Shown here: positions 776-52,679 of the stretch, piece by piece
How positions within the stretch are numbered: position 1 is the first letter of the stretch
How the letters are laid out: each line of letters begins with the position of its first letter
Assembly: GCF_020886775.1 (NCBI RefSeq)
Contig: NZ_AP024525.1
Span: forward strand, 1,488,001-1,552,000
Source of the DNA: Sinomonas cyclohexanicum
GTDB taxonomy: Bacteria; Actinomycetota; Actinomycetes; Actinomycetales; Micrococcaceae
Direction of reading: 5' to 3'
DNA length: 64,000 nt
Program-made: the position numbers and the translations under genes
The notes under the pieces: model-generated
Told to the model about the DNA's origin: nothing
Databases searched by the model: none
Seen by the model: the letters and a program-made list of their open reading frames with translations, nothing else

Positions 776-1687
776 CTAGTTGGTTCGCCGGTAGGGGGCG
801 AGGAGTTCCATGGCCGCGTCATAGTCGGACGAGACGCCGGGGCCGAGGAGCCCGGCCGGGTGCGCCGGCTCCCCGCCGAGGACAGGGATCGTGTACGACT
901 GGGACGCCTGGGTCTTGATCATTGCCTTGGCGATCAGGATCACGGCCTGCTTGATGTCCTGCGGGAGGGCGGTGCACGTGTCCCCGACCGTGTACGTCCC
1001 GGCCGGTGCCGCCGTCAGGGGGACCGTGGCGGGGGCCGTGGAACCGGTCGCCACCCACGTGTCCGCGACGGTGACGTACTCGGACTGGGTCTTGTCCGCG
1101 AGGACGAGCTGCTGCCCCGGCACGATCCCGAGCGGGTTCTGCACCGGCAGGTTCGCGCCGGTGGGCGCACCGGTGAGGGCCGTGTTCGCCCACCCGTTCA
1201 CGTACTGCACGGACACGTACGCGTGCCCTGACCGCCACACGGCGGACGGGGCCCACGTGGTGGTCGTGTTCGGGGGCTGGAACGGGACGGTCACGGACTT
1301 CTTGCCGATGTCCACGGTGGACAGGTCCGCGACCGCGGTCAGGGACCCGGGGACCCACCCCCACGACACGGCGGTCACCCCCACGATCGGGGTGTAGTCC
1401 AGTGGGACACGGACGGTGGGGCCGAGCCACCCGTCGGGGATGATCCGGTACCGGCCGTGCTGGGTGTCCAGTGTGGCGGCGAGTACCTTCTGGCACAGGT
1501 TGTCCGCCACGGCCGACGCACGGGCGAGCTGGAGCACCAACGCGGCGGCCTGCTGCTGGGGCGACCCGCTCGGGACAAGCTGGGACGCGTCCACACCGGT
1601 CGGGGCGTTCTGGAACTCCCACGTGGACACGTACGGGGACCGGGTCGGGTACGTGGGGGCGGTCGGGTTCACAGCCATGCCGGTCAT
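776..1687 (-). CDS. Head-tail connector (adaptor-like) protein
   Basis: 303 aa. ATG at 1687 follows GGAGG with 8 nt spacing. The N-terminal half has the helix pattern of phage gp6/gp15-type adaptors (residues about 40-75), followed by a beta-rich middle with YTPIVGVTAVSWG and a long Thr/Ala-rich section. The C-terminal helix IKQAVILIAKAMIKTQ is typical of these connector proteins. This is longer than a minimal adaptor, so the middle may be an added surface domain. Position right after the capsid and before the neck genes supports the call. Confidence 0.6.
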   Translation of the reverse strand: MTGMAVNPTAPTYPTRSPYVSTWEFQNAPTGVDASQLVPSGSPQQQAAALVLQLARASAVADNLCQKVLAATLDTQHGRYRIIPDGWLGPTVRVPLDYTPIVGVTAVSWGWVPGSLTAVADLSTVDIGKKSVTVPFQPPNTTTTWAPSAVWRSGHAYVSVQYVNGWANTALTGAPTGANLPVQNPLGIVPGQQLVLADKTQSEYVTVADTWVATGSTAPATVPLTAAPAGTYTVGDTCTALPQDIKQAVILIAKAMIKTQASQSYTIPVLGGEPAHPAGLLGPGVSSDYDAAMELLAPYRRTN

Positions 1688-31093: not shown

Positions 31094-31837
31094 CTAGGCC
31101 GTGGTGGCGTGGATGTCGACCTCCGCGACGACCCGCGCCCGGCGGGCCTTGAGCTTCGGCGTCGTGTACAGGTCGGCCCCGTCGATCACCGTCACGTCGT
31201 CCGGGTGGACAAGGCACTTGAGGAACCGGGTCGCCTCACGGTGGTAGTCACGGGCCTGCGCCGGGGACGGGGAGAAGTGCAGTCCGCCGCCGCACACGTC
31301 GGCCGGGTCCCAGTCCGAGCACTCGACGGTGCCGCCGACGGGGTAGTGGAATCCGCGCCCCGACTTGAGGTCGGCATCGACAGCCTTGTACACGACCAGG
31401 TGACCATCCTCCGTGGCCACCCCGTGGTAGTCGGCCCAGTCTTCGTGCCGGGTCAGGTCGAGTTTGGCGATGTCGATGACGGTGCCGCCGGTGACGGTGG
31501 CGCGGGCCGAGTGGAGGTGAATGGCGACATACTTGGACGCCTCGACGCGGCTGGAGTCCCACGCCTCGACGCGGCTGGAGCCCGTGGCCTCGACGCGGCT
31601 GGAGTCCCGCGCCTCGACGCGGCTGGAGCCCCGCGCCTCGACGCGGCTGGAGCCCGTGGCCACGACGCGGCTGGAGCCCGTGGCCACGACGCGGCTGGAG
31701 CCCGTGGCCACGACGCGGCTGGAGCCCGTGGCTTTGACATGGATCCAGACCCCGGCAGGGGAGTCGATGATGATCTCCGCATCGCCTCGGTTGAGGGCGT
31801 TGTCGAGTTCGGTCTGGGTGGTGACGGTGGTGGCCAT
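31094..31837 (-). CDS. Repeat-solenoid protein with DUF7666-like C-terminus
   Basis: 247 aa. Residues about 35-100 are eight near-perfect 8-residue repeats of the form ATGSSRVV / ARDSSRVE, predicted to stack as a narrow beta-solenoid. The C-terminal part (VVYKAVDADLKSGRGFHYPV, CGGGLHFSPSPAQARDY) resembles a domain common in phage and bacterial proteins with such repeats. Function unknown; a scaffold or surface-binding role is inference. Confidence 0.65.
   Translation of the reverse strand: MATTVTTQTELDNALNRGDAEIIIDSPAGVWIHVKATGSSRVVATGSSRVVATGSSRVVATGSSRVEARGSSRVEARDSSRVEATGSSRVEAWDSSRVEASKYVAIHLHSARATVTGGTVIDIAKLDLTRHEDWADYHGVATEDGHLVVYKAVDADLKSGRGFHYPVGGTVECSDWDPADVCGGGLHFSPSPAQARDYHREATRFLKCLVHPDDVTVIDGADLYTTPKLKARRARVVAEVDIHATTA
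31544..31735. repeat. Eight 24-bp tandem repeats inside a gene
   Basis: GACGCGGCTGGAG recurs at 31544, 31568, 31592, 31616, 31640, 31664, 31688 and 31712, exactly 24 bp apart. The right-hand copies are identical, so the array may expand or contract by slippage. Confidence 0.85.
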
Positions 31838-32098: not shown

Positions 32099-33060
32099 GC
32101 CCCCGCCCCCGCGAGCGCGTCGGCGATCGCGTTGATCGCATCCTCTGGGGCGTTGGCCTCGAACGCGGCCGCAGACAGGGACTCCAGTGCGTCCCGGTTC
32201 CCGTCGGCCATGGCCACCTCGGCGGCCCAGTCGCGTTCCTTCGTGCCGAGGACGTCGCCGGTGGTGGTGCGGCGGGGCGGGAACTCGTCCTTCACGGTGA
32301 CTTCACGGCGCTGGATGGATGCGTAGATGATCTCCAGTTGGGCGATGTCGGGTCCGGTCCACCGGTCGCGGGTGACCCCGAGTTTCGTTTCGAGCTGGTC
32401 CACGGTGACGCCGAGGGCGGCGAACGCCCCGGTCGCGTCGGTGACCTGCTGGGCGAGTGTCTTGCCGCCGTTGTTTCCGGCGAGGGTGGCGCGGCAGAGG
32501 TCTTCGGCTTCCTGCGTGAACCACATGGGCAGGACCGCGAAGATGCATTCGCGGACACGGCGTGCGCCCATGTTGGCGTTGTTCTCGTAGATGTCGCGCA
32601 TATCGGTGATCGCCTCGGCGCCTCCCCTCTTGTCGCGGATGTGGGGGACGATGAACACGACGGCGTTGCGGGTGTTGGTCTGGACGTCCCACGCGAAGGC
32701 CTGCATCTCGGAGATGCCCTTGATCTCGTCGCGGCGGAGCTCGGTGACACCGTAGGTCACGTTGCCCCAGCATCGGGCGAGTTCGCGGGCGAGGTGCACG
32801 GTGGCGCCGGTGACGGTGGCACCGCCTCGGGGGAACCGGAAGAATGCCCGCTGGGCGAGGGCCCGCTGCGCGCACGATTCGCGCATCTGCTCCAATGCCT
32901 GGGCGGTCTTGCGGGGTGCCTGCTGGGCGACGATGACCATGGCCTGCACTTCGGCGACGGCGCGGGTCTGTTCGATGACGGTGCCTTGTGAGGCGACGGT
33001 CCCGGCGTTGACGGGTGCGGCCATGATCTCTGCGGGGGTGGTTGTGGCGTTACGCGGCAT
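32095..33060 (-). CDS. recT: RecT-like single-strand annealing protein
   Basis: 321 aa. EVQAMVIVAQQAPRKTAQAL, AFFRFPRGGATVTGATVHLA, VVFIVPHIRDKRGG and MGARRVRECIFAVLPMWFTQ are the conserved order of actinophage RecT-like proteins. It overlaps the RecE-like gene by 11 nt, the normal pairing. Anneals complementary strands in phage recombination. Confidence 0.7.
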   Translation of the reverse strand: MPRNATTTPAEIMAAPVNAGTVASQGTVIEQTRAVAEVQAMVIVAQQAPRKTAQALEQMRESCAQRALAQRAFFRFPRGGATVTGATVHLARELARCWGNVTYGVTELRRDEIKGISEMQAFAWDVQTNTRNAVVFIVPHIRDKRGGAEAITDMRDIYENNANMGARRVRECIFAVLPMWFTQEAEDLCRATLAGNNGGKTLAQQVTDATGAFAALGVTVDQLETKLGVTRDRWTGPDIAQLEIIYASIQRREVTVKDEFPPRRTTTGDVLGTKERDWAAEVAMADGNRDALESLSAAAFEANAPEDAINAIADALAGAGA

Positions 33061-33892
33061 CGAGGATCTCCTGGTGTTCGTAGGTGGCGTAGGTGGGGAG
33101 GGTTACGGAGGTGATGCCTTCGTATCCGGGCCAGTGGCCCGTTTCGGTGCAGTGGGCGTAGAGGTCGACGGCGCGGTGCATGAGTTCGCGGCCCATGCGT
33201 GTGGCGTCGGGGTCGAGTTCGATGATGTTGACTTCGTAGGGTGCGGTTTTCTCTTGGACGATGAAGAGGAACCGGATGGCGTCGGGGTCGACTCCGAGGG
33301 CCACGGCGGCGGCGGTGTAGAAGGCCTGTTGCATGTGGTAGCGGTAGTCGGCTGCGGCGCGGCCGAACTTGTTGGGGGCGGCGGATGCGGCGGTCTTGTA
33401 GTCGGAGAGGAGGAGTAGCCCGGTGCCGGTGTAGTCCTTGAGCCAGTCGAACCTGGCGCGGAGGGGTGCCCCGGTGCGGGGGTCGGTGTAGAACACGGAT
33501 TGTTCGGCTTTGCCGTCGGAGAGGAGGGCGGTGGCGAGTTCGTGTTGGCGGAGTTTGGTGTTCATGGCGCGGATCTCCATCATGTCCTTTTCGAGGATGG
33601 GGATCTGGCCGTTCTCGCGTGCGGCTTTGGCGGCTGCTTTGTAGTCGTTGGTGCGGCGGTCGGGGAAGTCGAGGACGGCGACGTCGTTCTCGTGGCCTTC
33701 GAGGGTGAGGCGGTGGGCGATGGTGCCGACGTCGAGGGCGTCGGTGCGGGGTTGGGGGTGGTCCATGGCCCAGCGGTAGTGGGCTGGGGTGGATGGGGGG
33801 AGGATGAGTTTCGCGCCGGATGCGGAGAGGGACGGGTCGGCGTGGTACTCGTTGTTGGGCAGGTCGGGGACGAGGCGTGCTGTGCGTGGCAT
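33050..33892 (-). CDS. RecE/exonuclease VIII-like PD-(D/E)XK nuclease
   Basis: 280 aa. NNEYHADPSLSASGAKLILP, ALDVGTIAHRLTLEG (H), LRARFDWLKDYTGTGLLLLS with DYKTAASA (D...D-Y-K), and YRYHMQQAFYTAAAVALGVD (QxxxY). All motif residues of the RecE nuclease domain are visible. Produces 3' overhangs for RecT. Confidence 0.8.
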   Translation of the reverse strand: MPRTARLVPDLPNNEYHADPSLSASGAKLILPPSTPAHYRWAMDHPQPRTDALDVGTIAHRLTLEGHENDVAVLDFPDRRTNDYKAAAKAARENGQIPILEKDMMEIRAMNTKLRQHELATALLSDGKAEQSVFYTDPRTGAPLRARFDWLKDYTGTGLLLLSDYKTAASAAPNKFGRAAADYRYHMQQAFYTAAAVALGVDPDAIRFLFIVQEKTAPYEVNIIELDPDATRMGRELMHRAVDLYAHCTETGHWPGYEGITSVTLPTYATYEHQEILDAA

Positions 33893-33895
33893 TGG

Positions 33896-34675
33896 TTATG
33901 CCACCGCCTTGGTGGTCTGTGCCCCGCCAGCTTCGTGGATGGCGCGGGCGGCGACCCACAGGTCTTTGAGGATTTCCTTGCCGACGATGCGGAGGGCGTC
34001 GGCGTGGCGGTGGGAGTCCTTCCACGGGGACCCCGCAGGGGCGGGGTGCCCGGACGGTCCGCACCGGACGCACGCCTCGGCATGGACCCTGCCCTGGTTT
34101 GCTTCCTTGCGGGCGTAGTACACGTCGGCGTAGTGGCCCTGTGCCTTCAGGCAGGCTTCGGAGATGAGGTAGAGGCGCTTCTTCGCGGTGGGGTTGCCGA
34201 GGGCGAGGGCGTCGGCCTGTGTCATGCCCTTGCGCTTCTTGAGGGCGGCGTTTCCGTGGCCGCAGTAGGCCCAGAGTTGGGAGACGGTGCGGGGCGTGGT
34301 GCCGGTGACGGTCATGTTGCCGTCGGTGTCTTCGGTGTAGATGTCGCGCATGTAGGGGTCGCCGATGGAGGCGAGGAGGCGGGCCATGGTTTTGTCGCCG
34401 ATGCCTTTCTGGGCTTTGGCCCATGCGCCGAGGGGGTGGTTGCGCATGGTGCGTCCGAGGTTGAGGACGGCGGTGTGTTCGATGGTTTTGAGGGCGTCGA
34501 CGATGCTTTGGAGGCGTGCGACGTCGGGGTCGGTGGGGTCGAGGCCTGCGCCGTGGTCTTCGATGGGGAGGGTGAGGGTGCGGAGGCGGTTTTCGTTGGC
34601 GATGCGGGTGCGTTCGATGTCGTCGAGGGAGTCGGCGTTCATCTGGAGTGTGGGGTCGAACAGTGTGGTGGCCAT
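33896..34675 (-). CDS. Helix-hairpin-helix phage protein (IS110 C-terminal-like)
   Basis: 259 aa. The centre has WAKAQKGIGDKTMARLLASI and VSQLWAYCGHGNAALKKRKG, which resembles the helix-hairpin-helix region of IS110-type transposase C-termini; there is no DEDD catalytic domain, so it is not a transposase. EACVRCGPSGH gives a Cys site. Upstream AAAGGAAC ribosome site. Just downstream of hairpin array 1, likely a recombination accessory. Confidence 0.6.
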   Translation of the reverse strand: MATTLFDPTLQMNADSLDDIERTRIANENRLRTLTLPIEDHGAGLDPTDPDVARLQSIVDALKTIEHTAVLNLGRTMRNHPLGAWAKAQKGIGDKTMARLLASIGDPYMRDIYTEDTDGNMTVTGTTPRTVSQLWAYCGHGNAALKKRKGMTQADALALGNPTAKKRLYLISEACLKAQGHYADVYYARKEANQGRVHAEACVRCGPSGHPAPAGSPWKDSHRHADALRIVGKEILKDLWVAARAIHEAGGAQTTKAVA

Positions 34676-34697
34676 TGCGGGTTCCTTTCGTGGGTCC

Positions 34698-34862
34698 CTG
34701 CCCGGCGGCGCCGCCTTGGGTTCCGCTTGCTAGGTGGCCGGGCGGTGGTCTGGTCCCCGCCGGCGAGACCACCGTGGGTTTCGAGCGGCCGTTGGCTGGC
34801 GGGGTGGTTTGGTGCCGGGGCGGGAGCTGGATGGGTATCGAGCAACCGCTGGCCCCGGCTGG
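34698..34862 (-). repeat. Hairpin array 1 (three ~58-bp structured units)
   Basis: Three hairpins in the gap between genes. Stems: GCCCGGC 34700-34706 with 34737-34743; CCCCGCCGGC 34755-34764 with 34795-34804 (one G-T pair); GCCGGGGC 34814-34821 with 34852-34859. All three loops are exactly 30 nt and share TGGG at loop position 11-14 and TG at the end; two have TCGAGC. Stems differ in sequence yet stay complementary. Same family as the array at 35465-35634. Confidence 0.8.
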
Positions 34863-34866
34863 TCTG

Positions 34867-35442
34867 TCAGCCCTTGAGGGCCGTGTCGAGGACGTCCGGG
34901 GGAAGGTCGCGGACGGTCGCGGTGCCCCGGTTCGCCATCTCCTTCTCGACGCGGCGGAACTTCGCGGCCATCGCGGCATTGCGGGAGGCCATCACGTCTC
35001 GGGCATCGGCGGCGGTCAGCAGGTCGTCCCGGGTCAGGTCACCGAATCGCTTCCTCACATCGCCCACCTGGATGATCTGGCGGAGGCGTTCGAGGTGCTT
35101 GGCGTTGATCGCGGCGAACTTGCCGGAGCGGACGGGCTTCTGCTTGGCCCCCCGACCGGCGATCCCGTCATGGGTAACGGAGGTCCGGTGGCCGGTCGGG
35201 GAAGTCTCATCGTCGTCATCGCTGGCATGCATCGCGGCCGCAGCCGAGATCTGCATCGCGGCGCGGACCCGTTCGCGGAGGGCAGCCCGGTAGAAGTCAC
35301 GCAGGCACTCGTCCGGGGTGCGGGCGGCGACCTCGTCCGCGACCTCGTCCGGGGTGACGAGGTCCGTGTCGGTGAGGACGGTGCGGATCAGTGCGGAGAG
35401 CGTCAAGGGCTCTGCGGGCTCGGGGATGGCTAGTGCGGTCAT
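34867..35442 (-). CDS. 191-aa phage protein flanked by hairpin arrays
   Basis: ATG 35442 with AAGGAG 7 nt upstream; the longer frame would run through array 2 and is rejected. Helical: TLSALIRTVLTDTDLVTPDE, ARTPDECLRDFYRAALRERV, then a basic linker and LERLRQIIQVGDVRKRFGDL. No family recognised with certainty. It is the only gene with a hairpin array on both sides. Confidence 0.65.
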   Translation of the reverse strand: MTALAIPEPAEPLTLSALIRTVLTDTDLVTPDEVADEVAARTPDECLRDFYRAALRERVRAAMQISAAAAMHASDDDDETSPTGHRTSVTHDGIAGRGAKQKPVRSGKFAAINAKHLERLRQIIQVGDVRKRFGDLTRDDLLTAADARDVMASRNAAMAAKFRRVEKEMANRGTATVRDLPPDVLDTALKG

Positions 35443-35464
35443 TGTGGTTCTCCTTCGATAGGGT

Positions 35465-35634
35465 CCAGCGGGGCGTTGCTGTTGTGGGGTTCGGGTCGAC
35501 GCTGGCCCCGGCTGGAAGATTGGCCCCCGCCAGCGCACTGTGGGTGGGTTTCGGCCGCTTTTTGGCTGGCGGGGAAGTTTGGTCCTGCCCGACGTGTCGT
35601 TACTGGGGCGTCGAGCCGATTCTGGTCGGGCAGG
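35465..35634 (-). repeat. Hairpin array 2 (three ~58-bp structured units)
   Basis: Stems: CCAGCGGGGC 35465-35474 with GCCCCGGCTGG 35505-35515 (one bulge); CCCCGCCAGC 35525-35534 with 35565-35574; CCTGCCCGAC 35584-35593 with 35625-35634, the last two perfect. Loops are 30, 30 and 31 nt with TGGG or GGGG in the middle and TG before the 3' stem. Linkers resemble AAG-TTTGGTCC. Lies between the genes at 34867-35442 and 35642-36034. Confidence 0.8.
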
Positions 35635-35641
35635 AAGACTG

Positions 35642-39803: not shown

Positions 39804-40961
39804 TCATGCCCCGCCCCTCGCCCGCCCTGCGGCGTCGGCGGCGGTGCGGCGGGCCGCGTCGGTCGGGTGGCCGTAGATGTTCGCCGTGGTCGCGATGTTG
39901 GAGTGCCCGAGGCGGCGGGACACGGTCACGAGGTCCACGCCGGCGGCTGTGAGCCACGCCCCGTGGGAGTGGCGGAGCCAGTGGATCGTGGGCCGTGCGG
40001 GGAGGTGCCCGCCCACCCGTTCCGGGTCGGTCATGCGGGCCGTGGCGTGGCCCCAGATGCGCTTCTCGAAGACCCGGTAGGAGATGTACCCGCCGGTCTC
40101 GGGGTCGGGCACGAGCGGGTCCGTCGGTGGCCGTCCCTTGGTGGAGGCTTTGAGGAGCTTGTCGAGGTCGTCGTCGATGTCGATGACCCGGTTCGACTCG
40201 TCCGTCTTGGGCTTCCCGACGTAGTAGCGGGCCCTGTCGTCGCGTTTCCACGTCTTCGTGACGGTGACCGACGCGAGGACGTTCTCGGTGCCTGGTGTGT
40301 AGTCGGCGACGGTGAGGGCGGCCGCCTCACCCACACGCATGCCCGTCCCGGCGAGGAGCTCCACGAACAGGCGCCACGGCTCGGGGATCTCGGGCAGGAC
40401 GATGGCCCGGTACTGGGCCGGTTCGATGAGTTTGGCGCGGAGGGTGGTGCGCCGGGGTTTGGGGAGGCGGACACGGCGGGTGGGGTTGTCGTCGCGGATG
40501 CCTTCGGCGATGCACGTGTTCATGATCGCGGAGAGGAGCATGTGGCATTGGGCGATGGTGTTGGGTGCGAGGCCTGCGGTGTCGAGGGTGTTGACCCATC
40601 GGCGGACGTCGTTGCGGGTGAGGTCGGCGGCGCGGCGGGTGCCGAGGTGGGGGAGGATGTGGAGGCGGATGTTGATCTCGTAGGTGCGTTTGGTGCCGGG
40701 GTCCACGCCGGTGATGGTGTTGAGGTGGTCGTGGGCGGCGTGGGTGATGGTGAGGCCTTCGGCGTAGGCGTGTTCCTGGGCGTCGAGGGCGAGTTCGTAG
40801 GTCTGGTGGTTGGCGTTGAGGAAGTCGGCGAGCTGTTGGGCGCGGTTGGGGTCGTCGAAGGTCTTTGAGCGTTGTCTGCTGTCGCGGGTGCCGCCTTCGC
40901 GCCAGAGGACGGCGTAGGCTTGTGTGCCGTCGGCCCGGGTTCTGGGCTGTACTGAGGCCAT
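39804..40961 (-). CDS. int: Phage tyrosine integrase
   Basis: 385 aa from ATG 40961 (AAGGAG upstream); the longer open frame to 41690 lies antisense to gatC/gatA and is rejected. N-terminal arm-binding part (about 1-60), SAM-like core-binding domain (70-165), catalytic domain with R209 (GTGMRVGEAA), K250/K252, H327-x2-R330 (HWLRHSHG), H353 (RRLGHSNIATT) and Y363. All catalytic residues present. Its 5' end faces the host gat operon. Confidence 0.9.
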   Translation of the reverse strand: MASVQPRTRADGTQAYAVLWREGGTRDSRQRSKTFDDPNRAQQLADFLNANHQTYELALDAQEHAYAEGLTITHAAHDHLNTITGVDPGTKRTYEINIRLHILPHLGTRRAADLTRNDVRRWVNTLDTAGLAPNTIAQCHMLLSAIMNTCIAEGIRDDNPTRRVRLPKPRRTTLRAKLIEPAQYRAIVLPEIPEPWRLFVELLAGTGMRVGEAAALTVADYTPGTENVLASVTVTKTWKRDDRARYYVGKPKTDESNRVIDIDDDLDKLLKASTKGRPPTDPLVPDPETGGYISYRVFEKRIWGHATARMTDPERVGGHLPARPTIHWLRHSHGAWLTAAGVDLVTVSRRLGHSNIATTANIYGHPTDAARRTAADAAGRARGGA

Positions 40962-41064
40962 GGTGGGGGCTCCTTCCGTGGGTTCAACCAACACCGGCGC
41001 GTTTTCTGTCAACACGTCACTCCCGATTGTAGGCGGGAGTAGGGCGGGAAGGGTATGGAGATTT
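40962..41064. other. Probable right prophage-host junction (attachment region)
   Basis: 103 bp between int and gatC; the phage/host boundary should lie here because everything to the right is standard chromosome. It contains CTCCCG...CGGGAG (about 41022-41041) and no gene. The exact core cannot be set without the left junction, which is outside the window. No tRNA overlaps it. Confidence 0.4.
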
Positions 41065-41361
41065 ATGGCTGAGATCACTCGCGACGACGTTGCGCACCTC
41101 GCGCAGCTCGCGCGGATCGAGATGAGCGAGGCGGAACTCGACAAGATGGCGGGCGAGCTGGCCCACATCGTCGATGCCGTCAAGAGCGTGAGCGAGGCCG
41201 CCGGGCCCGACGTGCCCGCCACGAGCCACCCGATCCCGCTGCAGAACGTCTTCCGCGAGGACGTCGTGGGGCACGTGCTCACGCCCGCCGAGGCGCTCTC
41301 CGGCGCCCCCGACTCTGACGAGGACCGCTTCAAGGTCCCGGCCATCCTGGACGAGGAGTAG
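41065..41361 (+). CDS. gatC: Glu/Asp-tRNA amidotransferase subunit C
   Basis: 98 aa, full length. ITRDDVAHLAQLARIEMSEA and a C-terminal VLTPAEALSGAPDSDEDRFK with VPAILDEE are GatC hallmarks. First gene of gatCAB; wraps around GatA and stabilises the complex that converts Glu-tRNA(Gln) or Asp-tRNA(Asn) to the amide. ATG follows GGAG. Confidence 0.95.
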   Translation: MAEITRDDVAHLAQLARIEMSEAELDKMAGELAHIVDAVKSVSEAAGPDVPATSHPIPLQNVFREDVVGHVLTPAEALSGAPDSDEDRFKVPAILDEE

Positions 41362-41364
41362 ACG

Positions 41365-42912
41365 ATGAGCACCGACAAGAGCCTCAACCCCCTCATCACG
41401 TCCACCGCGTCCGCCCTGGCGGAGAAGCTCGCCGCCAAGGAGGTCTCCTCCGAGGAGGTCACGCAGGCGCACCTCGACCGGATTGCCGAGGTCGACGGCG
41501 GGGAGCGCGGCGTCCACGCGTTCCTGCACGTCAACACGGAGGAGGCGCTCGCCGTCGCCCGCGAGGTGGACTCGATCCGCGCCGCAGGCGGGGACGACGC
41601 CGCAGCCCTCCACCCGCTCGCGGGCGTCCCGATCGCGATCAAGGACCTCATCGTCACGGTGGGCCAGCCCACGACGGCGGGCTCCCGCATCCTCGAGGGC
41701 TGGATGAGCCCCTACGATGCGACCGTCATCAAGAAGATCCGGGCCGCGAAGCTCCCGATCCTCGGCAAGACCAACCTCGACGAGTTCGCGATGGGCTCCT
41801 CCACGGAGCACTCGGCTTTCGGCCCGACCCGCAACCCGTGGGACCTCGACCGCATCCCCGGCGGCTCCGGCGGCGGTTCGGCCGCGGCCGTCGCGGCGTT
41901 CGAGGCGCCCCTCGCGCTCGGCACCGACACGGGCGGCTCGATCCGCCAGCCTGGCGCCGTCACCGGCACGGTCGGCGTCAAGCCGACGTACGGCGCGGTG
42001 TCCCGCTACGGCGCGATCGCGATGGCCTCGAGCCTGGACCAGATCGGCCCGGTCTCCCGTTCGGTGCTCGACGCCGCGCTCCTCCAGGAGCTCATCGGAG
42101 GCCACGACCCGTTCGACTCGACCTCGCTGACCGACGCGTTCGACACGCTGGCCGAGGCCGCGCGCGGCGGCGCCGCCCCTGGCTCGCTCAAGGGGCTGCG
42201 CATCGGCGTCGTGAAGGAGCTCGGCGGCGAGGGCTACCAGTCCGGCGTCGAGGCCCGGTTCCGGGAATCGCTCGAGCTGCTCAAGGGCGCCGGCGCGCAG
42301 ATCGTCGAGGTCTCGTGCCCCAACTTCAAGTACGCCCTCGGCGCGTACTACCTCATCATGCCGTCCGAGGTCTCGAGCAACCTCGCGAAGTTCGACGGCG
42401 TCCGGTACGGCCTGCGCGTCACGCCCCAGGACGGCCCCCTCACCATCGAGCGCGTCATGGCCGCGACCCGCGCCGCCGGGTTCGGCGACGAGGCGAAGCG
42501 CCGCATCATCCTCGGCACATACGCCCTCTCGGCCGGCTACTACGACGCCTACTACGGCTCGGCCCAGAAGGTCCGTACCCTCATCCAGCGGGACTTCGAC
42601 GCGGCGTTCGCCCAGGCGGATGTCCTCATCTCCCCGACGGCGCCCACGACGGCGTTCAAGCTCGGCGAGAAGCTCGACGACCCGCTCGCGATGTACCTCA
42701 ACGACGTCGCGACCATCCCGGCGAACCTTGCCGGCGTGCCCGGTCTGTCCCTCCCGAGTGGACTCGCCGACGAGGACGGCCTGCCCGCGGGCCTCCAGAT
42801 CCTCGCCCCCGCCCGCCAGGACGCCCGTCTGTACAAGGTCGGCGCGGCCCTCGAGAATCTGCTCGAGGCGCAGTGGGGCGGCCCGCTGCTCGCCCAGGCC
42901 CCGGCGCTCTAA
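41365..42912 (+). CDS. gatA: Glu/Asp-tRNA amidotransferase subunit A
   Basis: 515 aa, full length. Amidase-signature enzyme with the Ser-cisSer-Lys triad K93 (AIKDLI), S168 ([10 protein letters not shown]) and S192 ([10 protein letters not shown]). Releases ammonia from glutamine for the GatB kinase site. Starts 3 nt after gatC. Confidence 0.95.
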
Positions 42913-51455: not shown

Positions 51456-52679
51456 ATGTTCGCAGGTGTGAGGGAGCAGCTCGCCGCGGAGCTGGACGAG
51501 ATCCGCGCCGCCGGGACGTTCAAGGAGGAGCGGCACATCGACTCGCCGCAGTCGGCGCACATCCAGGCCGGGCCGCTCGGCGCGCCGGCGGGGGAGGTGC
51601 TCAATTTCTGCGCCAACAACTACCTGGGCCTCTCGGACCATCCGGACCTCATCGCGTCGGCGAAGAGGGCCCTCGACGAGCGTGGCTTCGGCATGGCGTC
51701 GGTGCGGTTCATCTGCGGCACCCAGGACGCGCACCTCGAGCTCGAGCGCCGCGTCTCCGAGTTCCTCGGCACGGAGGGCACCATCCTGTTCTCGAGCTGC
51801 TTCGACGCGAACGGCGGCGTGTTCGAGGCGCTGCTCGGAGCCGAGGACGCCGTCATCTCGGATGCCCTCAACCACGCCTCGATCATCGACGGCATCCGCC
51901 TCTGCAAGGCCGCCCGGCTGCGGTACGCGAACCGGGACATGGGCGAGCTCGAGGCCCGCCTGCAGGAGGCCAAGGCGATGCACGACGGCGCCGGGGCGCG
52001 CCGGGTGCTCATCGTCACCGACGGTGTCTTCTCGATGGACGGGTACCTCGCGCCGCTCCGCGAGATCTGCGACCTCGCGGACACGTACGGCGCGATGGTC
52101 ATGGTCGACGACTCCCACGCCGTCGGGTTCATGGGCGCCACCGGGGCCGGAACCCCCGAGCATGCAGGCGTCTCCGACCGGGTGGACATCTACACGGGCA
52201 CGTTCGGAAAGGCGCTCGGCGGCGCCTCGGGCGGCTATGTGTCCGGCCGCGCCGAGATCGTCGCGACGCTGCGCCAGAAGGCCCGGCCCTACCTGTTCTC
52301 CAACTCCGTGGCCCCGGCGATCGTGGCCGCCACGATGACCGCGCTGGAGCTCGTGGCCGGCTCGGCGGACCTGCGCGAGCAGCTATTCGCCAACGCCGCG
52401 CTCTTCCGGAAGCGGATGGGCGAGGAGGGCTTCGAGCTCCTGGACGGCGAGCACGCGATCGTCCCGGTCATGTTCGGGGACGCCGCGCTCGCCGGACGGA
52501 TCGCGGCCGAGATGCTCGCCCACGGCGTGTACGTCACGGCCTTCTCCTATCCCGTGGTGCCCAAGGGCCTGGCCCGCATCCGCGTCCAGCTCTCGGCGGC
52601 GCACACGCCCGAGGACGTCGAGACCGCGGTCACAGCGTTCGTCGCCGCGCGGGAAGCGATATCCGCCGGCACGGTGTGA
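51456..52679 (+). CDS. kbl: 2-amino-3-ketobutyrate CoA ligase (glycine C-acetyltransferase)
   Basis: 407 aa, full length. PLP enzyme: [38 protein letters not shown] and [20 protein letters not shown] with the PLP Lys in GTFGKALGG. Converts 2-amino-3-ketobutyrate and CoA to glycine and acetyl-CoA, after Tdh. The 65-bp gap from tdh holds short GCGAAGAGG and CCAGAAAGCGA repeats. Confidence 0.9.

What the first reader, a model, noticed from the sequence alone, without database searches (positions are those of the whole stretch)
34698..35634. Two arrays of three structured hairpins with covarying stems and a 30-nt loop
Seen: six hairpins at 34700-34743, 34755-34804, 34814-34859, 35465-35515, 35525-35574 and 35584-35634. 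Five loops are exactly 30 nt and one is 31. Stem sequences differ (GCCCGGC, CCCCGCCGGC, GCCGGGGC, CCAGCGGGGC, CCCCGCCAGC, CCTGCCCGAC) yet their partners change with them. Loops keep TGGG (GGGG in the 31-nt loop) near position 11-14, often TCGAGC, and TG before the 3' stem; units repeat every 55-60 bp. Changing-but-paired stems around a conserved loop of fixed size is the signature of a functional RNA or single-stranded DNA structure, not of a terminator. The arrays sit on both sides of one gene (34867-35442) in the recombination operon. Inference: an unrecognised phage RNA family, perhaps an antitermination site like HK022 put, a decoy RNA, or a protein-binding hairpin set.
Basis: partly seen in the sequence, partly recalled or inferred. 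Interest (0 to 1): 0.88.

Follow-up and report, generated by a model that had tools for sequence, protein, structure and literature searches.

The report
Phage TIGR guide-RNA array with TasA
The hairpins are a set of seven small guide RNAs of the recently described TIGR-Tas kind, carried by a prophage beside the gene for the protein that should use them; related phages that grow in a harmless laboratory bacterium carry the same system with very variable guides, so the open question of what these guides aim at can be tested there.

Summary
Six hairpins lie at the stated places and a seventh inside the gene between them (35144-35202), all read on the minus (gene) strand. Each is stem-CCA-N9-CG-N4/5-CCA-N9-CG-stem with variable but paired stems: the published anatomy of a TIGR stem-loop array (two spacers between box C and box D; box D here CG). 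The gene just downstream (33896-34675) encodes TasA: NCBIfam TIGR-Tas 189 bits (cut-off 100); its model's best matches are solved TasR and TasH. So this is a member of TIGR-Tas (Faure 2025), not an unrecognised RNA family. Additions: (1) a companion protein, phrog_4604, encoded upstream of tasA in 10 of 10 loci scanned (but not in L009); (2) guide units in frame inside tasA or the companion gene; (3) the same locus in 15 of 15 Fromanvirus mycobacteriophages fetched; in 14 compared, spacers differ at 58% of positions, tasA at 3% (8% at fourfold sites). No natural target was found: none with 2 or fewer mismatches in the own-phage sequence held, no overall excess in 197 related genomes for three units, no exact match in 50,697 phage records for six guides. 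Identity is near certain; function (RNA-guided DNA binding without cutting) is inference.

The parts
35579..35636 (-). TIGR stem-loop unit 1 (core CCA-to-CG at 35593-35625; spacers of 9 and 9 nt, 5-nt linker)
   Evidence: R1 58.5 bits (one of the six units the model was built from); box pattern
35520..35576 (-). TIGR stem-loop unit 2 (core 35534-35565; 9+9 nt)
   Evidence: R1 58.7 bits (model unit); box pattern
35460..35517 (-). TIGR stem-loop unit 3 (core 35474-35505; 9+9 nt; one bulged C in the stem)
   Evidence: R1 57.1 bits (model unit); box pattern
35144..35202 (-).
   Evidence: R1 38.6 bits, E 2.2e-6, not part of the model; box pattern with 13 paired positions; residues 78-101 have pLDDT under 50
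34809..34864 (-). TIGR stem-loop unit 4 (core 34821-34852; 9+9 nt)
   Evidence: R1 45.3 bits (model unit); box pattern
34750..34806 (-). TIGR stem-loop unit 5 (core 34764-34795; 9+9 nt)
   Evidence: R1 62.6 bits (model unit); box pattern
34692..34747 (-). TIGR stem-loop unit 6 (core 34706-34737; 9+9 nt), just upstream of the tasA start codon
   Evidence: R1 38.1 bits (model unit); box pattern
33896..34675 (-). tasA: 259-aa protein with a Nop-type fold and no nuclease domain (phrog_4285, 'transposase')
   Evidence: NF052498 TIGR_Tas_endo E 1e-55, 189.1 bits, cut-off 100; profile match to 9mty (TasR complex) E 8.6e-23 and TasH 21kl E 1.4e-16; AlphaFold pLDDT 89.6, Foldseek ranks 1-11 all TasR or TasH
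34867..35442 (-). companion gene, phrog_4604, unknown function: two mostly helical parts joined by a disordered linker
   Evidence: phrog_4604 E 8.2e-21; model pLDDT 77.5 but pTM only 0.39; no PDB fold match under E 4
33050..33892 (-). exonuclease VIII-type gene (PDDEXK, DUF3799) directly after tasA; operon neighbour
   Evidence: phrog_412 E 3.6e-89; PF12684 E 3.2e-26

Best explanation
The locus is a TIGR-TasA system with stem-loop arrays, carried by an actinobacterial prophage. Steps: (1) the operon strand carries seven hairpins, each with two 9-nt spacers between box C (CCA) and box D (CG) [shown from sequence]; (2) the TasA dimer binds each hairpin and host enzymes free it as a single guide [inferred from published TasA, TasR and TasH work]; (3) spacer A pairs with one strand and spacer B with the other of a DNA site that reads spacer A followed by the reverse complement of spacer B [inferred from the published 8-nt 3' overhangs]; (4) TasA has no nuclease, so it binds, unwinds and bends the site and blocks it or brings a partner there, perhaps the companion phrog_4604 or the neighbouring exonuclease [inference]; (5) the likely targets are fast-changing rival phages or other mobile DNA, because the guides are hypervariable between otherwise near-identical phages and do not match the own-phage sequence held [inference]. 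Units inside the tasA or companion frames would make guide excision compete with translation of the same message, a possible feedback on TasA amount [inference]. The confidence given is for the identity (steps 1-2 in kind); for step 5 I would say about 0.45.
For: All 7 window units have the exact CCA-N9-CG-N4/5-CCA-N9-CG core. TasA identity: 10 of 10 aligned homologues match NF052498; PDB profile; fold. Array-protein linkage from the protein side: tblastn with the protein alone returned 11 viral loci and the hairpin model hits 10 of the 11 (two of them, L009 and L010, share the same units), best E per locus 4.6e-9 to 7.6e-6. It also hits 13 of 13 further phage loci searched, 29 of 29 matches on the tasA strand. 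Published stem-loop TIGR arrays have two 8-12-nt spacers, box C and box D, variable palindromic stems and, in the tested example, a nuclease-less TasA with processing shown (PMC12045711). Spacers A and B are not complementary to each other (0.357 against 0.363 permuted), as the paper reports for TIGR. Hypervariable spacers: mean pairwise difference 0.579 in spacer columns, 0.110 in stem, box and linker columns, 0.032 in tasA, over 14 of 15 phages fetched; fourfold sites of tasA 0.080.
Against: No transcript or processing data here. No target found: 106 distinct units against 733,390 bases (both strands counted) of held sequence gave 14 A+rcB matches with 2 or fewer mismatches, against 13, 9 and 14 for the three other layouts and 11, 8 and 8 for permuted pairs. 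Three window units in 197 family genomes gave 1, 0 and 6 one-mismatch matches; the reversed-pattern control gave 0, 10 and 4. Six Fromanvirus guides had no exact 18-nt match in 50,697 phage records (control 18-mers were found); for at least two of the six the spacer edges are uncertain. Pfam gives no TasA hit for the window protein beyond a weak HHH_5 (E 0.31). Box D is CG here, not UG as in the solved TasR complex. Only 21 of the 88 phage records with a TasA-like match were fetched, and one of these (TurkishDelight, a weak homologue) has no such unit.
Confidence: 0.95

Rival explanations
1. The guides steer TasA to sites in the phage's own genome, as a programmable repressor or replication regulator.
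For: TasA has no nuclease, so self-binding need not be harmful; BPBiebs31, Pinto, KyMonks1A and Parliament have an annotated repressor gene within a few genes of tasA.
Against: No A+rcB match with 2 or fewer mismatches left of about 41 kb in the window (taken as prophage) or in 50 kb of BPBiebs31, though matches with 3 or more exist. Of the 14 such matches of 106 units the only one in the unit's own source lies in the bacterial part of the window (51642); for the IMG/VR loci and most named phages only part of the genome was held.
Confidence: 0.15
2. TasA is an RNA-guided aid to phage recombination or integration: it opens chosen DNA sites for the exonuclease and recombination proteins encoded next to it.
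For: tasA is directly followed by an exonuclease gene here and in 8 Fromanvirus records (Buttons, Pinto, Parliament, Lamina13, Francis47, Bircsak, Barriga, Fascinus), with one gene between in 6 (BPBiebs31, KyMonks1A, HarryOW, Euphoria, Ohno789, Atkinbua); in Thor the stretch fetched ends too early. The paper suggests such a role from the DNA bend.
Against: Does not by itself explain hypervariable guides; in the Gordonia locus L034 the exonuclease is about 3.7 kb downstream of tasA.
Confidence: 0.2
3. The gene is a real IS110-type transposase with a bridge RNA, as its database names say, and the hairpins are its ends or mobile repeats.
For: Names 'transposase' in PHROG and some GenBank records; the fold is related to IS110-type recombinases ISCro4 and IS621 (ranks 12-22).
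Against: No DEDD RuvC part seen in a 259-aa protein; TasR and TasH score far better than ISCro4 and IS621 (5e-8 to 6e-6 against 2e-3 to 2e-2); IS110 model NF033542 matches only 2 of 10 members, best E 0.018; no further array copies in the own genome.
Confidence: 0.02
4. A put-like antitermination site, decoy RNA or plain protein-binding hairpin set with no guide function.
For: Strong hairpins in an operon leader.
Against: Two fixed-length variable blocks per unit, hypervariable between sister phages while boxes and stems stay; a Tas protein encoded next to the arrays.
Confidence: 0.02

Closest known systems
TIGR-TasA with stem-loop arrays (Faure et al. 2025, PMC12045711; example from the Peromyscus leucopus gut)
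   Same: Nuclease-less Nop-domain TasA; tandem hairpins; [quoted passage not shown] variable palindromic stems; several sub-arrays
   Different: In the window box D is CG, spacers are a constant 9 nt and the loop between them 4-5 nt; a companion gene phrog_4604 sits between the sub-arrays; some units lie in frame inside genes. I did not meet these points in the parts of the paper that I read; its supplement was not available, so the loci themselves may be listed there
TIGR-TasR and TIGR-TasH with dual-repeat arrays
   Same: CCA box C, 9-nt spacers in TasR, related Nop fold (9mty, 21kl, 9vzx)
   Different: Those have RuvC or HNH nuclease and constant edge repeats instead of variable stems
IS110-type bridge-RNA recombinases (IS621, ISCro4)
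   Same: Related fold; guides in hairpin loops (per the paper)
   Different: No DEDD domain, no sign of transposition, many single-hairpin guides instead of one two-loop bridge RNA
Archaeal box C/D snoRNPs (Nop5)
   Same: Distant fold relation and C/D box logic (per the paper; 3id5, 3icx and 1nt2 appear only at E 0.75 or worse)
   Different: DNA rather than rRNA as presumed target; no fibrillarin-type partner was seen, nor specially looked for

Membership tests
TIGR-Tas (stem-loop array, TasA) | Tas protein with Nop-type domain | tested here: met
   NF052498 189.1 bits, cut-off 100; Foldseek best 11 hits TasR and TasH, TM 0.58-0.69 by query length
TIGR-Tas (stem-loop array, TasA) | TasA: no nuclease domain fused | tested here: met
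   259 aa; model is two long N-terminal helices and the RNA-binding part; no nuclease domain among Pfam or NCBIfam matches apart from the family's own name
[quoted passage not shown]
   7 of 7 units CCA-N9-CG-linker-CCA-N9-CG
TIGR-Tas (stem-loop array, TasA) | Variable but palindromic stems instead of edge repeats | tested here: met
TIGR-Tas (stem-loop array, TasA) | Box D is UG in the solved TasR complex; boxes may diverge but almost always covary between edge and loop | tested here: inconclusive
   CG at both positions in 7 of 7 window units; but some units of L027, L033, L034 and L036 have CG at one and TG at the other
TIGR-Tas (stem-loop array, TasA) | Transcribed and processed to discrete RNAs bound by TasA | not testable with these tools
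   needs RNA sequencing
TIGR-Tas (stem-loop array, TasA) | RNA-guided binding of DNA on both strands | not testable with these tools
   no target found by sequence
IS110 transposase | DEDD RuvC catalytic domain and mobile copies | tested here: not met
   no such domain match; fold; single array locus in the own genome
Rfam RNA families | Match to a curated covariance model | tested here: not met
   0 matches at gathering score in the window; 2 by E-value (1.9 and 3.5, far below gathering score), neither on the hairpins

The most novel reading that the evidence does not exclude
Actinobacterial phages carry a two-protein form of TIGR: TasA plus a dedicated partner (phrog_4604), with guides that diversify far faster than neutral sites and are swapped slot by slot between sister phages, serving a running contest with rival phages; guide units inside the tasA and partner reading frames tie guide release to TasA synthesis.
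Probability: 0.45. Interest if true: 0.82.

Novelty: new member of a known kind. Interest (0 to 1): 0.6.

Why it matters
The TIGR paper says that natural targets, the role of TasA and the way arrays change are unknown, targets partly because most loci are metagenomic. Relatives found here are named, sequenced phages isolated on Mycobacterium smegmatis mc2 155 and Gordonia terrae: 76 Mycobacterium and 5 Gordonia records match TasA, and the 14 Fromanvirus arrays compared carry different guides in near-identical surroundings. That makes target, function and guide turnover testable by plain phage genetics, and gives a candidate second protein.

Tried and rejected
Rfam: nothing. Own-genome copies of the array: only the locus itself, the two other model hits at E 0.50 and 0.88. 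Hairpin model on 148 relatives: besides the own genome, 5 single hits at E 0.0044-0.0095, not followed and probably chance. Targets: see evidence against; also IMG/VR exact scans with a 0-2 nt gap gave 0 contigs for one guide, 2 contigs with unlike surroundings for a window guide, and 6 contigs for a third guide that share one sequence, tested for one of them to be like Stenotrophomonas phage Smp131, so one event and taken as chance. The single site with 2 mismatches in the own genome for the seventh unit (51642) is judged within chance; the other six units were not searched in the own genome with 2 mismatches. Companion protein: no credible Pfam, NCBIfam, PDB sequence or fold match. Weak homologue in Streptomyces phage TurkishDelight (L037) has no such units. 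In 396 actinobacterial genomes 29 match the TIGR-Tas model at E 1e-10 but only 2 pass its cut-off; the other of these two (G477, L055) has no R1 hit at E 0.5 or better. L012 holds only a piece of tasA (52 residues matched), after what by eye looks like a companion reading frame, and no unit. L009 has tasA and a long array, but the neighbour gene scanned is not phrog_4604; L011 was not scanned for it. The subcluster name A1, used in my notes for the Fromanvirus phages, is recalled, not from a call.

Full report
What is there. On the minus strand, which is the strand of the surrounding genes, the window has seven hairpins, not six: 35579-35636, 35520-35576, 35460-35517, 35144-35202, 34809-34864, 34750-34806 and 34692-34747. 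Between the stems every unit reads CCA, nine bases, CG, four or five bases, CCA, nine bases, CG. Twenty Markov shuffles of the window hold no such unit; the window holds 7 on the minus and 1 on the plus strand.

The neighbouring genes. In the order of transcription: a small gene (35642 upward, no family found), three hairpins, gene 34867-35442 (phrog_4604, unknown function) with one hairpin inside, three hairpins, gene 33896-34675 (phrog_4285, 'transposase'), an exonuclease VIII-type gene, and a gene of phrog_3657. The 'transposase' has no Pfam match at E 0.1, but a single-sequence search of the PDB gave TasH at E 0.0049 and 9mty at 0.013. A ten-member profile gave 9mty (TasR complex) at 8.6e-23 and TasH (21kl) at 1.4e-16. 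NCBIfam NF052498, TIGR-Tas, matches 10 of 10 members and the window protein at 189.1 bits over a cut-off of 100. The AlphaFold model (mean pLDDT 89.6) has TasR and TasH chains as its eleven best matches, then IS110-type recombinases at E 2e-3 and worse. It is TasA: no nuclease part.

Fit to the published system. I read parts 1 to 4 of 12 of the text of PMC12045711, its sections 24, 44 and 49, and passages by search; of the review PMC12385481 I saw passages. [quoted passage not shown] The window fits each feature that sequence can show, with box D CG in place of UG.

Linkage tested from the protein side. A tblastn search of IMG/VR with the TasA protein alone gave 11 loci; the hairpin model built from the six window units hits 10 of the 11, L009 and L010 sharing the same units. 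It also hits 13 of 13 Fromanvirus loci searched, 29 of 29 matches on the tasA strand. With the box pattern alone and no stem condition, 81 distinct matches on the sense strand and 6 on the other were found in 20 sources (L010 left out); 71 of 81 and 1 of 6 have at least 6 of 8 flanking pairs, mean pairing 0.909 against 0.506 shuffled. Spacer A and spacer B of a unit are not complementary beyond permuted pairs.

Named relatives. In the phage collection 83 records match TasA at E 1e-5 or better: 76 Mycobacterium, 5 Gordonia, 1 Rhodococcus, 1 Arthrobacter. With a limit of E 1, 88 records match, among them Salicola phage CGphi29, the TasH phage of the paper. I fetched 21 of them. Units were seen in prophiFSAT01-1, Gordonia phages Morrissey, BENtherdunthat and Spooky, Rhodococcus phage Peregrin and 15 of 15 Fromanvirus phages, not in TurkishDelight. 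The tasA genes are annotated there as hypothetical protein, DNA-binding protein or transposase.

A companion gene. phrog_4604 is encoded upstream of tasA, with hairpins between the two, in 10 of 10 loci scanned (window, L002-L004, L007, L027, L030, L033-L035; I picked the reading frame lying before tasA in each; in L027 one small annotated frame lies between, over the hairpins). L005, L006 and L008 align with it too. In the phage collection the Pinto companion matches 76 records at E 0.01, 75 Mycobacterium and 1 Gordonia. In 396 actinobacterial genomes phrog_4604 occurs only in the window's own; TIGR_Tas passes its cut-off in 2. It is not universal: the neighbour gene scanned in L009 is not phrog_4604. 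The model, of low overall confidence (pTM 0.39), shows two helical parts joined by a linker, residues 78-101, with pLDDT under 50, and no fold match. The paper calls TIGR generally a single-protein system, with a ParB-like partner in some loci; I did not meet such a partner family in the parts that I read.

Guides inside genes. The seventh window unit lies in the companion's reading frame and codes for that disordered linker. In the TasA alignment of 16 proteins, 7 (L003, L005, L006, L007, L008, L034, L036) carry an in-frame insertion at one place, after the WAYCG motif, where one to three guide units lie; L008 has two more units in a second insertion (unit places). In BENtherdunthat and Spooky the depositors' annotation also runs through them. 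Since the paper finds TasR protein necessary for guide maturation, cutting a guide out of the tasA message would lower TasA synthesis; this feedback is my inference.

Hypervariable guides. Fifteen Fromanvirus arrays were fetched; one (Euphoria) lacks the anchor used for the comparison and was dropped from it, though it has four units with spacers of its own. In the other 14 there are five hairpin slots upstream of tasA. Mean pairwise difference is 0.579 in spacer columns, 0.110 in stem, box and linker columns, 0.032 in tasA, and 0.080 at fourfold-degenerate sites of tasA, highest pair 0.129. Slots have 9, 12, 10, 12 and 8 distinct interiors (the last among 13 phages), and the same allele occurs with different alleles in other slots; one slot-5 allele is shared by 6 phages. 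Both stepwise changes and whole exchange are visible. The spacer figure depends on a MAFFT alignment of short blocks and includes exchange of old alleles, so it measures diversity, not a mutation rate; that the paper noted no such thing rests only on the parts read.

Targets. From the 8-nt 3' overhangs in the paper I infer that a target strand reads spacer A and then the reverse complement of spacer B. Scans of the held sequences show no excess over other layouts or permuted pairs and no own-phage target with 2 or fewer mismatches. Three of seven window guides in 197 family genomes gave 1, 0 and 6 one-mismatch matches against 0, 10 and 4 for the reversed pattern. Six Fromanvirus guides have no exact match in 50,697 phage records; control 18-mers were found under the same settings. 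Only exact, ungapped matches could be seen in that test, and for at least two of the six guides the spacer edges are uncertain.

Verdict. What seems new is the partner gene, the in-frame units and the guide hypervariability in phages that can be grown; I found no paper on these in the held library (searches, seen as listings; most subscription papers, preprints and the supplement of the TIGR paper were not available).

Noticed in passing
window 31521-31707 (gene 31094-31837, minus strand): Short tandem repeats coding for repeated GSSRV-type residues in a protein whose other end matches DUF7666.
   Followed up: no
window 1235-1266 (+): A lone box-pattern match with 9 paired positions on the other strand, far from the locus; only 13.2 bits with the hairpin model, so probably chance.
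   Followed up: no
window 51642-51659 (+): The only site in the own genome with 2 or fewer mismatches to the predicted ungapped target of the seventh unit; judged within chance.
   Followed up: partly
L010 1818-2100 and 6386; L005 4366: L010 uses the same 9-nt spacer in units with different partners, and one L010 spacer B equals a spacer A of L005, which hints at recombination between half-units or a shared target.
   Followed up: no
L028-L032, slot 2 of the Fromanvirus arrays: Slot 2 has a 13-nt self-pairing loop between the two spacers instead of 4-5 nt.
   Followed up: partly
NCBIfam NF052498 and GenBank names: The family model is called an endonuclease and some of the phage genes are called transposase, although the members examined here have no nuclease or transposase domain match.
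   Followed up: partly
L055 (genome G477, contig 33): A second actinobacterial genome has a Tas protein over the cut-off but no array that this hairpin model sees; it may carry a dual-repeat array.
   Followed up: no
L012 1-624: By eye a companion-type reading frame is followed closely by only the last part of tasA; possibly a deletion or an assembly join.
   Followed up: no
window 39804-42912: What looks like an integrase gene beside gatC and gatA, probably the prophage edge (names by eye, not searched).
   Followed up: no
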